A DNA stretch of 64,000 bases from Aliiroseovarius sp. PrR006. Lineage in GTDB: Bacteria; Pseudomonadota; Alphaproteobacteria; Rhodobacterales; Rhodobacteraceae. The DNA lies in contig NZ_JAAGOY010000004.1 of NCBI RefSeq assembly GCF_010500215.1, forward strand, positions 1,550,001-1,614,000. Reading direction: 5' to 3'. The notes under the pieces were generated by a model. The model did no database searches. It saw only the letters and a program-made list of their open reading frames with translations, and was not told the DNA's origin. Each line of letters opens with the position of its first letter. The stretch's first letter is position 1. A program made the position numbers and the translations under genes. Below are positions 8,348 to 33,262 of this stretch, in pieces.

Positions 8348-9274
8348 TTACTTGCCCAAGCACCAGCGCATCACGGCTTTCTGCGCGTGCAGGCGGTTTT
8401 CAGCTTCGTCAAAAATCACGGACTGCGGGCCATCCATGACCGAGTTCGTTACTTCCTCTTCGCGGTGGGCTGGCAAGCAGTGCATGAACAGCGCATCCGG
8501 TTTGGCATGTGCCATCAGGTCGTCATTGATCTGATAAGGCCGCAACAAATTGTGACGACGTTCACGGGCCGATGGCGCGTCGTGCATCGACACCCAGGTG
8601 TCTGCGACGATCAGGTCAGCGCCTTCGACGGCCGCAACAGGATCACGCACGATTTCGATGTTGGCCCCCTTGTCGCGCGCTTCGTTGACGAACGCAGCCT
8701 CGGGGTCAAGAACCTCGGGTCCGGTAAAGGTCAGGTCAAAGCCGAACTGGCCAGCGGCGTGCAGGAACGATGCACAGACGTTGTTGCCGTCACCGGCCCA
8801 GACGACTTTCTTGCCCTCGATGGATCCGCGATGCTCTTCGTAGGTCAGGATGTCGGCCATGATCTGGCAGGGGTGCGAGCGGTTGGTCAGCCCATTGATC
8901 ACCGGCACGTCGGCGTGCTCGGCCATCTCAAGCAAGGTCGCCTCTTCGAAGGTCCGGATCATGATCATGTCGACATAACGGGACAGCACCTTGGCGGTAT
9001 CGGCAACCGTTTCACCATGGCCCAGCTGCATTTCCGAGCCGGACAGAACCATGGTCTGCCCGCCCATCTGACGCACACCCACGTCAAAGCTGACGCGCGT
9101 CCGGGTCGAGGGCTTTTCAAAGATCAGCGCGACCATGTGGCCGTCCAGCGGCTTTTCGTCATCCAATGCCCCCTTGGGGCGGCCTGCGCGCGCGGCTTTG
9201 ATCCGGTGTGCTTCCGAGATGATGTTTTTCAGATCGCTGGTATCAGTAGCGTTGATATCGAGGAAATGTGTCAT
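8348..9274 (-). CDS. argF: Ornithine carbamoyltransferase
   Basis: ArgF joins carbamoyl phosphate to ornithine to give citrulline, the sixth step of arginine synthesis. The 308-residue protein has the carbamoyl-phosphate motif STRTR (56-60), the second-half motif HPCQ (134-137) and the ornithine-binding HCLPAHR (265-271). All are canonical for an anabolic OTCase. Its start overlaps the 3' end of argD by four bases, so the two are translationally coupled in the order argD-argF. carB and argH lie elsewhere in the window. Confidence 0.96.
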
Positions 9275-29968: not shown

Positions 29969-30574
29969 TTACTTGCGCCCAATGCGTGGCTCTTCGCCAG
30001 AGATGATGCGCGCAATATTCGCGCTGTGGCGGTAGAAAATCAAGGCAGCCAATGCAACTGAAATTAGAACAAGGCTGTTCCAGCCAAACACCAAAGCGAT
30101 GACCGGCGACAGCGCCGCTGCGACCAACGCGGCAAGCGAGGAGATGCGGAAGATCAGCGCAGTAACCAACCATGTGGCACAAGCGGCCAGCCCCAGAGGG
30201 AAGGCCAGCGCCAACATGGTGCCCAGCCAAGTGGCCACGCCCTTGCCGCCCTTGAACCCCAGAAACACCGGGAAGCAGTGGCCAAGAAACGCCATGAACC
30301 CTGCCAGTTGGGCGGCGTCTTCGGCAAAGAGAGCGCGGGCCAGCAAGACGGCGGCGCCCCCTTTGCCGGCGTCTCCGATCAGGGTCAGGAATGCGGCGAC
30401 TTTGTTGCCGGTGCGCAGCACGTTGGTCGCCCCGATATTGCCCGATCCGATCTGGCGCAGATCGCCCAGCCCAAACAACCGCGCCATGACGATACCAAAG
30501 GGGATCGAGCCCAGCAGATAGCCAGCGATGGCGACACCAATCAGCAGCGGGAATGAGGTGAGCAGATCAGGCAT
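29969..30574 (-). CDS. plsY: Acyl-phosphate:glycerol-3-phosphate acyltransferase PlsY
   Basis: PlsY is the integral membrane enzyme that starts phospholipid synthesis by acylating glycerol 3-phosphate with acyl-phosphate. The 201-residue protein has about five transmembrane helices. Its three conserved loops are SIPFGIVMARLFG..GSGNIGATNVLRTG in the first half and FKGGKGVATWLG in the middle. The start MPDLLTSF at 30574 overlaps the preceding gene by eight bases. It is the last gene of the pyrB operon. The gap to DUF805 has no terminator. Confidence 0.93.
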   Translation of the reverse strand: MPDLLTSFPLLIGVAIAGYLLGSIPFGIVMARLFGLGDLRQIGSGNIGATNVLRTGNKVAAFLTLIGDAGKGGAAVLLARALFAEDAAQLAGFMAFLGHCFPVFLGFKGGKGVATWLGTMLALAFPLGLAACATWLVTALIFRISSLAALVAAALSPVIALVFGWNSLVLISVALAALIFYRHSANIARIISGEEPRIGRK

Positions 30575-31838
30575 CTTCGCCCCCAAACACACGTTCGCCG
30601 CCAACCCATGTGCCCAGCACTTTGCCCTCCATCCGCGCGCCATCAAACGGCGTGTTTTTGGATTTCGAATTCAGCTTGAAGCGGTCCAGAACGAAGGGCG
30701 CATCGGGGTCGAACAGGACCAGATCGGCGGGCCCACCCACGGTCAGCTCTCCTCCCGGTAGGTTGAAGCGGCGGGCGGGGTTCAAGGACAGCGCACGCCA
30801 CAGCGTCGGCAGGTCGATCAGACCCGCATGCACCAGACGCATCGCAGCGGGCAGCAGCGTTTCCAACGCCACCGCGCCCGAGGCCGCTTCTTCGAACGGC
30901 AGGCGTTTGCTTTCCTCATCCTGCGGGGTGTGCATGGAGGAAATTATGTCGATCAGGCCCGAGGCCACGGCCTCGACCATCGCCAGACGGTCGTCTTCGC
31001 TGCGCAAGGGCGGCTTCACCTTGAAGAAGGTGCGATAGTCGCCCACGTCCAGCTCGTTCAGGGTCAGGTGGTGGATGTTCACACCTGCGGACACATCGAC
31101 GCCAGCCGCTTTCGCGCGCTCCAGCGCAGGCAACGATTTCGCGGTGGACAGACTGTCAGCGTGATAGGCCACGCCCGTCATCTCGGCCAGCGCCAGATCA
31201 CGTTCCAACCCCATCCGTTCGGCCATAGGGGTGACCGCTGGCAGACCGCGCAAAGACGCAAATTTGCCCGAGGTCACCGCCGCCCCCTTCGACAGTTGCG
31301 GATCCTGCGGGTGGCCGATGATCAGCGCGCGCAGCGAGCGGGCATAGGTCATGGCGCGGGAATAGACCTTGTTGTCGGTCACCACATGGTCGCAATCGGT
31401 AAAGGCAATTGCTCCGGCATCCAGCATAAAACCCATCTCGACCATCTCGCGGCCTTCACGGCCTTTAGTCAGGGCGCCCATGGAATGCACGTTCACAGGC
31501 GTCACCTGCCCGGCGCGGCGGGTTACGAAGGACAACGTCTCGGGCGTGTCCACGGCGGGGGTGGTGTCGGGGCGAATGACCATCGTGGTCACGCCGCCCG
31601 CCGCCGCCGCCAGACCGGCGGTGCGGAAGCTTTCCTTGTGCCGCTCGCCCGGCTCGCCGATCTTCACACCGATATCCACGATGCCGGGAGCCAGACATTT
31701 GCCGCCGCAATCGATGACATCGCCTTCCTCGCCCGCATTCACGCCGGTGATCAGCCCGCCTTCGATGGTCAGGCTGCCAACCTCGTCCGTGCCGGTTTCC
31801 GGGTTGATCAGGCGGGCATTGGTGAAGGTGGTGGTCAT
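30567..31838 (-). CDS. Dihydroorotase-like protein, metal site lost (PyrC'/PyrX type)
   Basis: This 423-residue protein has the class I dihydroorotase fold and sits in the pyrB operon, but key residues are missing. The usual DxHxHxREPG is DIGVKIGEPG (55-64), so both histidines are gone (Gly57, Lys59). The metal histidine of YHxxHVST is Ser229 in YHADSLST. The catalytic Asp of TDHAPH is Met302 in SSMHTPQ. HHL and KVKPPLR remain. In Pseudomonas a comparable inactive PyrC' protein is a structural partner of aspartate carbamoyltransferase. I infer the same role here, with the true dihydroorotase elsewhere. The start is the ATG at 31838 after AAGGAG. Automatic annotation would call it pyrC. Confidence 0.85.
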   Translation of the reverse strand: MTTTFTNARLINPETGTDEVGSLTIEGGLITGVNAGEEGDVIDCGGKCLAPGIVDIGVKIGEPGERHKESFRTAGLAAAAGGVTTMVIRPDTTPAVDTPETLSFVTRRAGQVTPVNVHSMGALTKGREGREMVEMGFMLDAGAIAFTDCDHVVTDNKVYSRAMTYARSLRALIIGHPQDPQLSKGAAVTSGKFASLRGLPAVTPMAERMGLERDLALAEMTGVAYHADSLSTAKSLPALERAKAAGVDVSAGVNIHHLTLNELDVGDYRTFFKVKPPLRSEDDRLAMVEAVASGLIDIISSMHTPQDEESKRLPFEEAASGAVALETLLPAAMRLVHAGLIDLPTLWRALSLNPARRFNLPGGELTVGGPADLVLFDPDAPFVLDRFKLNSKSKNTPFDGARMEGKVLGTWVGGERVFGGEDA

Positions 31839-31848
31839 GTCAGTCTCC

Positions 31849-32307
31849 TTACGCGCCTCGCGCACGATCAATCGCGGCTTGGGTGGCCTTGGCGTTGGCC
31901 TGATATTTCAACATGTATTTGTCGCCGGACAGGGTGACCAACTGAGCCGCGGTGAAGATCACGTTCACCTTGTCGATCGAGGTCAACAGAATGGTGCGCC
32001 CATCCGGACCAATCATGCGACGGTTGGTCAGGTGCCACGTAAAGCCCAGCTGTTCTTTGGCGACATAAAGCCCGCGCACGGCGATCGCCGCGACAGAACC
32101 AATCACACCCGTCCAAGCATGCGGGTTACCCATCGCCATCAATGCGCCCGAGATCACAAGCGCGCCCAAGGCGGCCAGCATCACATGCTCTTTCACATAG
32201 GTCGTTGTATTACCCGAGAATCTGTCGATCAGCGTCTCGCCCGGTTCCAGTTGAGGGGCGGTCTGGCTTTCCAGACGGGGTTCCAGTTCGAACTCTTGCT
32301 CAGACAT
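31849..32307 (-). CDS. Bacterial PH-domain membrane protein in the pyr operon
   Basis: This 152-residue protein has an acidic N-terminus, two hydrophobic helices (about 43-60 and 66-82), and a C-terminal domain with [20 protein letters not shown], the pattern of bacterial PH-like (bPH2/YdbT) domains. The domain probably faces the cytoplasm next to the membrane. Its start overlaps the 3' end of pyrB by eight bases, and the dihydroorotase-like gene starts ten bases after its stop. No link between this family and pyrimidine synthesis is known to me. Confidence 0.8.
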
Positions 32308-33262
32308 AGACGCCCTCGGCCTTATTCTCGCGTTCCGCCTTCAGATTGCGCGCCAGAAGGTCCATCGCGGCCATGCGCACGGCGACGCCCATTTCGACCT
32401 GTTCCTGAATGACCGAACGGTTGATGTCGTCGGCGATGGTGCCGTCGATCTCGACCCCACGGTTCATCGGGCCGGGATGCATGACGATGGCGTCATCCTT
32501 GGCGTGAGCCAGCTTTTCGGCGTCCAGACCGTAACGATGATAGTATTCGCGTTCCGAGGGGATGAAGCCGCCATCCATACGCTCGCGCTGAAGCCGCAGC
32601 ATCATGACGACATCGGCGTCTTTCAGACCCTCTTCCATGTCGTCATAAACCTCGACCCCGAACTGGTCGATCTGGCTGGGCATCAAGGTCGGCGGGCCGA
32701 CGAGGCGCACGCGGTTTTCCATCTTGCCCAGCAGGATCAGGTTCGAACGGGCAACGCGGCTATGCGCGATGTCGCCGCAGATCGCCACGGTCAGACGATG
32801 AAGGCGGCCCTTCTCGCGCCGGATGGTCAGCGCATCCAAAAGCGCCTGCGTCGGGTGCTCGTGCTTGCCGTCGCCAGCGTTTAGAACGGCACAGTTCACC
32901 TTCTCGGCCAGAAGGTTCACCGCGCCCGAATGCGGGTGACGCACAACCAGCAGATCCGGATGCATCGCGTTCAAGGTCAGCGCTGTATCAATCAGCGTCT
33001 CGCCCTTCTTAATGGACGACGCCTGCATCGCCATGTTCATCACATCCGCACCCAGACGCTTGCCGGCAATCTCGAAAGACGCCTGCGTGCGGGTGGAGTT
33101 CTCGAAGAACATGTTGATCTGGGTCAGCCCCGCCAAAGCATCGGAATGCTTGGTGGTCGATCGGTTCATCTCGGCATAGCTGTCGGCAAGATCGAGAACG
33201 GTTTTGATCTCTTCCGGGTGAAGCTGTTCGATCCCAAGAAGATGTCGTTGGCGGAATGTCAT
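32300..33262 (-). CDS. pyrB: Aspartate carbamoyltransferase catalytic chain
   Basis: PyrB condenses carbamoyl phosphate with aspartate, the first committed step of pyrimidine synthesis. The 320-residue protein has the carbamoyl-phosphate motif [13 protein letters not shown] in the N-terminal half, with Gln in place of the last Arg of STRTR as in many alphaproteobacteria. The second half has [12 protein letters not shown]. No pyrI regulatory subunit is nearby; the operon instead holds the dihydroorotase-like gene. The start is the ATG at 33262 after GGAGG; an open frame reaching 33646 is not coding. Confidence 0.95.

What the first reader, a model, noticed from the sequence alone, without database searches (positions are those of the whole stretch)
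30567..31838. Dihydroorotase-like gene in the pyrB operon has lost its metal site
Seen: the class I dihydroorotase scaffold is clear, but the metal pattern DxHxH is DIGVK (Gly57, Lys59), the histidine of YHxxHVST is Ser229, and the catalytic aspartate of TDHAPH is Met302. Known: Pseudomonas has an inactive PyrC' that holds its aspartate carbamoyltransferase together. Inference: this operon encodes a similar ATCase scaffold, with the working dihydroorotase elsewhere in the genome. Automatic annotation would call this pyrC and miss it.
Basis: partly seen in the sequence, partly recalled or inferred. Interest (0 to 1): 0.72.

Follow-up and report, generated by a model that had tools for sequence, protein, structure and literature searches.

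The report
Inactive dihydroorotase scaffold beside ATCase gene
A gene that looks like the third enzyme of pyrimidine synthesis has lost its metal-binding site and most likely survives as a structural partner of the second enzyme, while a different gene elsewhere in the genome does the chemistry.

Summary
Window 31838-30567 (-) encodes a 423-residue class I dihydroorotase (DHOase) fold that has replaced all four Aquifex alpha-site residues (His61, His63, Asp153, Asp305 are Gly57, Lys59, Cys149, Met302), plus Arg65, Asn95, His232 and His309. It is not decaying: median dN/dS is 0.06 in its genus. The genome has one PyrB over the model cut-off, no PyrI match, and a complete class II pyrC beside pyrE, outside the window. 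Gene order is a tight pyrB-orf152-pyrX-plsY. Best reading: a PyrX/PyrC'-type pseudo-DHOase that assembles or stabilises PyrB. The state is widespread: 0 of 57 copies of its class on the tree keep the whole alpha site, and in 103 genomes read across the phylum the site is lost in 68 of 69 with another DHOase found and intact in 33 of 34 without. In print, disrupting the pyrB-linked copy of Sinorhizobium meliloti gives pyrimidine auxotrophy and was already proposed to be PyrX. So this is a known kind; the class-wide spread, graded erosion and a possibly separate origin from other classes' copies are the additions. Inactivity, complex formation and PyrB's need for it were not measured here.

The parts
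30567..31838 (-). pyrX: pseudo-dihydroorotase, class I DHOase fold, 423 aa
   Evidence: AF2 model pLDDT 72, pTM 0.81, best PDB match 3d6n_A TM 0.83
31656..31676 (-). codons 55-61, DIGVKIG where active class I enzymes have DxHxHxR: both alpha-site histidines and the arginine replaced
31392..31394 (-). codon 149, Cys in place of alpha-site Asp153 of Aquifex
31152..31154 (-). codon 229, Ser in place of His232 (beta site, dispensable in Aquifex)
30921..30935 (-). codons 302-306, MHTPQ where active enzymes have DHAPH: Asp305 and His309 replaced
32300..33262 (-). pyrB: aspartate carbamoyltransferase catalytic chain, 320 aa from this ATG, STRT, HPTQ and HPGP motifs present
31849..32307 (-). orf152 between pyrB and pyrX: model of a helical (membrane) hairpin with a PH-like beta domain, no Pfam or NCBIfam match; its start overlaps the pyrB end by 8 bases
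29969..30574 (-). plsY, start overlaps the pyrX stop by 8 bases (tight run, one transcript likely, not shown)

Best explanation
The gene encodes PyrX, a dihydroorotase-fold protein without dihydroorotase activity that binds the PyrB chain encoded next to it and holds PyrB trimers in an active, probably dodecameric, class A aspartate transcarbamoylase; the dihydroorotase reaction is done by the class II PyrC encoded with pyrE. Shown here: lost metal and substrate residues, strong purifying selection, gene linkage, second DHOase with intact residues, no PyrI match, DHOase fold. Inferred: lack of activity, contact with PyrB, oligomeric state.
For: All four Aquifex alpha-site residues and the Arg65, Asn95, His309 positions are replaced (zinc-ligand roles from PMC3880350 passages). 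Median dN/dS 0.059, maximum 0.13, in 180 usable of 190 genus pairs. pyrB lies in 80 of 80 named loci. No PyrI match and one TIGR00670 match over cut-off in the genome. Class II PyrC beside pyrE. Across 103 genomes read: alpha site lost with another DHOase found 68; intact with none found 33; exceptions 2. One own-family genome, G028, has PyrB and PyrX in one 900-aa open frame. Literature: P. aeruginosa PyrB is monomeric and inactive without its pDHO (PMC7053772); S. meliloti smc01361, next to pyrB, gives pyrimidine auxotrophy when disrupted although an essential PyrC lies elsewhere (PMC5929573 passages); R. pomeroyi SPO0284, 'dihydroorotase, multifunctional complex', is listed like pyrE among mutants with higher fitness in mixed culture, in a different treatment (PMC10041152 passages; orthology with this gene not checked).
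Against: No complex, activity or mutant was measured. Loss of zinc ligands is not proof of inactivity: a PyrC paralogue without them is reported active (PMC2770081 passage). pyrB is not always directly beside pyrX: in G019 it lies about 4 kb off on the other strand, other genomes have genes between, and in L083, L100 and L111 no pyrB was seen in the 1.8-1.9 kb held upstream (in L013 and L050 the contig ends). The fusion is a single case in an 82%-complete genome; each of the 7 listed matches that cover both proteins in a sample of 289 class genomes holds at least one stop. If 33262 is its start, the window PyrB lacks the 11-residue N-terminal extension of P. aeruginosa (5 residues precede the profile start). 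The co-occurrence is clustered by clade, so its count overstates independent evidence.
Confidence: 0.83

Rival explanations
1. It is an active, metal-independent or unusual-metal dihydroorotase, a back-up for the class II enzyme, as reported for a Pseudomonas PyrC paralogue that lacks zinc ligands.
For: Precedent of a ligand-less PyrC paralogue with activity (PMC2770081 passage, citing Brichta 2004, not read). His176, His303, Asp55 and Asp148 are kept.
Against: Besides the metal ligands, the Arg65, Asn95 and His309 positions are changed. The pyrB-linked copy keeps an intact site almost only where no other DHOase was found (33 of the 34 intact copies read). The S. meliloti mutant is auxotrophic although another PyrC exists (PMC5929573), which a back-up enzyme would not predict.
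Confidence: 0.06
2. The dead pocket has been turned into a new conserved site, for a nucleotide or other ligand, so PyrX is a regulatory subunit and not only a scaffold.
For: In 80 named relatives the Lys59, Asp91, His176 and Gln306 positions are invariant, and the nine former active-site positions are more conserved than random sets of nine (mean entropy 0.107 against 0.606; 0.9% of sets as low).
Against: Buried core positions are conserved anyway, and the Gly57 count is partly conditioned by the scan pattern. Other genomes of the class fill the same positions differently (RxF, RxQ, RxK, QxH, or a deletion). PMC7053772 argues that P. [quoted passage not shown] The AF2 model is poor just there (pLDDT under 50 at 60-70, 88-94, 302-323).
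Confidence: 0.1
3. It is a decaying pseudogene kept by its place between pyrB and plsY.
For: Catalytic residues are lost; it sits in a tight gene run.
Against: Open over 419 or more codons in the 20 genus loci used, median dN/dS 0.059 (G008, with Ns inside, was left out), and kept with pyrB in the loci read apart from the exceptions named.
Confidence: 0.01

Closest known systems
Sinorhizobium meliloti Smc01361, proposed PyrX
   Same: pyrB-linked gene annotated as dihydroorotase in an alphaproteobacterium with another, essential PyrC; disruption gives pyrimidine auxotrophy (PMC5929573 passages)
   Different: Its sequence was not compared here by name; the window's family has GxK where other genomes of the class mostly have RxF, RxQ or RxK
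Pseudomonas PyrC'/pDHO of class A2 ATCase
   Same: Inactive class I DHOase homologue needed by PyrB (PMC7053772); separate active DHOase (PMC2770081)
   Different: No named Pseudomonas sequence was in hand. The unnamed degenerate copies of other classes have SxR, AxR, SxA, AxS, AxA or NxA and all 20 read keep Arg65 (one, L113, scored over the cut-off of NF005791); the 7 on the tree fall outside the window's class in the best tree, but one common clade is not rejected (AU p 0.25)
Aquifex aeolicus ATC-DHO complex (class A1, 3d6n)
   Same: Best structural match of the model; DHOase paired with ATCase
   Different: Aquifex DHOase is active and keeps His61, His63, Asp153, Asp305 (PMC3880350 passages)
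Fungal Ura2 pseudo-DHOase domain
   Same: DHOase fold without zinc ligands, tied to ATCase (PMC7053772, introduction)
   Different: Domain of a multifunctional chain; here a separate gene, seen fused only in G028

Membership tests
Class A2 ATCase pseudo-dihydroorotase (PyrC'/PyrX) | Homologous over its length to class I dihydroorotase | tested here: met
Class A2 ATCase pseudo-dihydroorotase (PyrC'/PyrX) | Encoded with pyrB | tested here: met
   among relatives G019 has them 4 kb apart on opposite strands
Class A2 ATCase pseudo-dihydroorotase (PyrC'/PyrX) | Zinc ligands and substrate residues lost | tested here: met
   zinc roles, substrate roles recalled
Class A2 ATCase pseudo-dihydroorotase (PyrC'/PyrX) | Separate dihydroorotase with intact residues in the genome | tested here: met
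Class A2 ATCase pseudo-dihydroorotase (PyrC'/PyrX) | PyrB without a PyrI regulatory chain | tested here: met
Class A2 ATCase pseudo-dihydroorotase (PyrC'/PyrX) | No DHOase activity; PyrB needs it; dodecamer | not testable with these tools
   Only relatives in print: PMC7053772, PMC5929573
Class A2 ATCase pseudo-dihydroorotase (PyrC'/PyrX) | Inactive state inherited from the same ancestor as the degenerate copies of other classes | tested here: inconclusive
   Best tree separates them by a branch 95/88; AU p 0.25; no named Pseudomonas sequence included
Active class I dihydroorotase (TIGR00857) | Alpha-site His-x-His, Asp153, Asp305 | tested here: not met
   0 of 4 kept

The most novel reading that the evidence does not exclude
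The window's class (Alphaproteobacteria) turned its pyrB-linked dihydroorotase into a pseudoenzyme once, separately from the Pseudomonas type, by stepwise erosion after a second dihydroorotase was gained; in the window's family the dead pocket was then rebuilt as a conserved Gly-Lys/Asp/Cys/His/Met-Gln site that binds a regulator, and the membrane-hairpin PH-like protein encoded between pyrB and pyrX ties this ATCase to the membrane.
Probability: 0.1. Interest if true: 0.6.

Novelty: new member of a known kind. Interest (0 to 1): 0.36.

Why it matters
Models used for automatic naming call this protein and the degenerate relatives tried 'dihydroorotase', which misleads metabolic models and mutant screens: if PyrX serves PyrB, a mutant blocks the step before the one named. 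The phylum-wide trade-off (dead site with a second enzyme, live site without one) makes a natural series from enzyme to scaffold, with rare intermediates (G070 has both, G122 is one ligand short), on which the order of losses and the conditions of pseudoenzyme birth can be tested.

Tried and rejected
Chance or assembly error: rejected, the changes recur in the relatives read. Pseudogene: rejected by dN/dS. One shared loss with the copies of other classes: neither shown nor excluded. Co-occurrence by class II alone: failed in many genomes of the class until the second class I type (PRK09060) was counted. Rhodobacter sphaeroides essential-gene paper: no hit for pyrB, pyrC or dihydroorotase in the main text. 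Promoter and terminator scan: about as many sites as in shuffles (1 against 0.9; 2 against 3.5). In one search my pyrB query was sliced out of frame, so the PyrB column of that call is void; one search repeated it correctly. Genomes of the phylum sample with a match but with the site not read: 56 of 159 (103 read); the unread ones include 11 of the window's own family and G064 and G072. Rows left out of the tree: 28 of 111, near-copies, second-type paralogues and one row with Ns, one of them (L009) put back as 'window'.

Full report
WHAT IS THERE. The finding lies in a 3.22-Mb genome held as 15 contigs; the window is C4:1550001-1614000. The gene runs from ATG 31838 to the stop at 30567 on the minus strand, 423 residues. 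It is the third of four closely packed genes on that strand: pyrB (33262-32300, 320 aa), a 152-aa open frame (32307-31849), this gene, and plsY (30574-29969). Starts and stops overlap by 8 bases at pyrB/orf152 and at pyrX/plsY, and 10 bases part orf152 from pyrX (read). One transcript is likely but was not shown; the promoter and terminator scan found about what shuffles give.

THE SITE. By sequence the protein matches Aquifex dihydroorotase best in the PDB (E 2.9e-73), and its AlphaFold2 model (mean pLDDT 72, pTM 0.81) is closest to 3d6n_A, the Aquifex enzyme in its ATCase complex (TM 0.83). The model is weak at the former active-site loops. In Aquifex, zinc is held by His61, His63 and Asp153, with Asp305 near by, while His180 and His232 can both be changed to alanine with little effect on activity (PMC3880350, passages). 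Here the four are Gly57, Lys59, Cys149 and Met302; Arg65 is Gly61, Asn95 is Asp91, His232 is Ser229 and His309 is Gln306. Of the six metal positions only His180 (His176) stays. The roles of Arg65, Asn95 and His309 as substrate residues are from recall.

IS IT KEPT. In the genus, 180 usable of 190 pairs of coding sequences (20 loci) give a median dN/dS of 0.059 and a maximum of 0.13. GxK is in 34 of 36 own-family loci. In the 80 loci of named records (Ruegeria, Leisingera, Shimia, Roseovarius, Sulfitobacter and others; the best 80 of at least 510) the residues at Lys59, Asp91, His176 and Gln306 are the same in 80 of 80, Cys149 in 76, Met302 in 79, and position 229 is Gln in 79. One scan pattern demanded the Gly at 57, so that count is conditioned. 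pyrB is present in 80 of 80 of these loci and plsY in 79.

THE OTHER ENZYME. The genome holds a class II PyrC at C4:1147310-1148332 (TIGR00856, 433 bits, cut-off 293) with HLH, Lys, His, His and Asp all present, directly before pyrE (NF001729, 379 bits, cut-off 245). A further class I-like match at C7:122833 scores 104 bits against a cut-off of 538; it was not identified, and a dihydropyrimidinase is my guess. There is one ATCase over its cut-off, beside pyrX, and no PyrI match (the PyrI model rang in 7 of 14 control genomes). Of the 37 own-genus and own-family genomes, 34 have class II PyrC over its cut-off; G008 has it in two pieces below, G011 (56% complete) has none, and G028 has none but holds a PRK09060-like copy (L059).

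HOW WIDE. On a tree of 84 rows, built with the six active-site motifs masked out, the 57 rows of the window's class form one side of a branch (100/99); none keeps all four alpha-site residues. Ten intact enzymes of other classes are their nearest group (95/88); the 7 degenerate copies of other classes form their own group (99/99) elsewhere. Holding both degenerate groups together costs 11.4 log units and is not rejected (AU p 0.25), so a separate origin is favoured and not proven. Erosion is graded: L095 lacks one ligand, others keep two, one or none of the four, and one family (f13) has deleted the stretch with His63 and Arg65.

THE TRADE-OFF. In a sample of 199 genomes of the phylum at 90% completeness or better, 159 have a match at E 1e-40. 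I read the site in 103 of these. Alpha site intact and no other DHOase found: 33. Lost, with another DHOase: 68 (34 class II, 32 second class I type PRK09060, 2 both). Exceptions: G070, intact with a class II enzyme, and G122, three of four alpha residues with no other enzyme found. The 62 matches of the window's class in that sample split as 27 with class II, 34 with PRK09060, none with both, and G122 with neither. Outside that sample G040 has class II and a copy that looks PRK09060-like by motif, and in two incomplete genomes, G047 (77%) and G058 (71%), no other DHOase was found although their sites are degenerate. 'Other DHOase' rests on two searches with a threshold of 1e-60; other types were not sought. 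The model NF006559 (PRK09060) was run on two of these copies; 11 of the 12 second-type copies read have Gln for the first His, and their activity is assumed. Clades, not genomes, are the independent units, so the Fisher values printed should not be used.

PHYSICAL LINK. In G028, same family, PyrB and PyrX lie in one 900-aa frame with a linker of about 45 residues. It is one 82%-complete genome, and in the seven other listed cases where one match covers both proteins at least one stop lies inside, so a lost stop or an error is possible. pyrB was not seen in the stretch held for L083, L100 and L111 and is inverted in G019.

PRINT. P. aeruginosa ATCase is monomeric and inactive without its inactive DHOase-like chain and has full activity as a dodecamer with it (PMC7053772; first fifth of the text and passages). 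S. meliloti smc01361, next to pyrB, gives pyrimidine auxotrophy when disrupted, and the authors propose PyrX (PMC5929573, passages). R. pomeroyi SPO0284, 'dihydroorotase, multifunctional complex', and pyrE are the two pyrimidine genes listed among mutants with higher fitness in mixed cultures, each in a different treatment (PMC10041152, passages); that SPO0284 is this gene's orthologue was not checked. A PyrC paralogue without zinc ligands is reported active (PMC2770081, passage), the main caution. Class A ATCases with active or inactive DHOase are textbook matter in reviews (PMC4581275, PMC6022934, passages). In the listings of eight searches I saw no title or abstract that states an inactive PyrX for Rhodobacteraceae; the library lacks most subscription journals, and Labedan 2004, Schurr 1995 and Brichta 2004 were not read.

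VERDICT. Observation confirmed and extended; interpretation supported. It works like PyrC'/PyrX and meets the sequence-level features of that kind that could be tested, save common descent with the copies of other classes, which is undecided; biochemical features are untested. It is a new member of a known kind with moderate interest, mainly for the class-wide natural series and for the misnaming by curated models.

Noticed in passing
window 31849-32307 (-): 152-aa protein between pyrB and pyrX with no Pfam or NCBIfam match; confident model (pLDDT 91) of two long helices (membrane hairpin) plus a PH-like beta domain, weak PDB matches to PH/PTB/FERM domains (best E 0.013). A relative is found in 57 of 80 named loci of the family.
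   Followed up: partly
L044:1064-3763 (G028:C38): PyrB and PyrX in one uninterrupted 900-aa frame.
   Followed up: partly
L095 (G122) and L208 (G070): The two exceptions to the trade-off: G122 has Gln for one histidine and no other DHOase found; G070 has an intact class I copy and a class II enzyme.
   Followed up: partly
L071, L096-L098, L222-L225 (family code f13): PyrX copies that have deleted the stretch with His63 and Arg65 outright.
   Followed up: no
L059-L068, L070, L072: The second class I type (PRK09060-like by motif; model run on L063 and L065) has DxQxHxR, Gln for the first metal histidine, in 11 of 12 loci read (L068 keeps His), although in 34 of 62 genomes of the class sample it was the only other DHOase found.
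   Followed up: no
G019:C7:751078-757212: pyrX and pyrB about 4 kb apart on opposite strands, an inversion against the other genus loci read.
   Followed up: partly
L082 and L113: NCBIfam equivalog models NF006558 and NF005791, named dihydroorotase, score proteins with a lost alpha site over their cut-offs (751 against 645; 767 against 442 bits).
   Followed up: partly
window about 8363-9268 (-): A second carbamoyltransferase below the ATCase cut-off (153 bits), probably ornithine carbamoyltransferase (not identified further).
   Followed up: no
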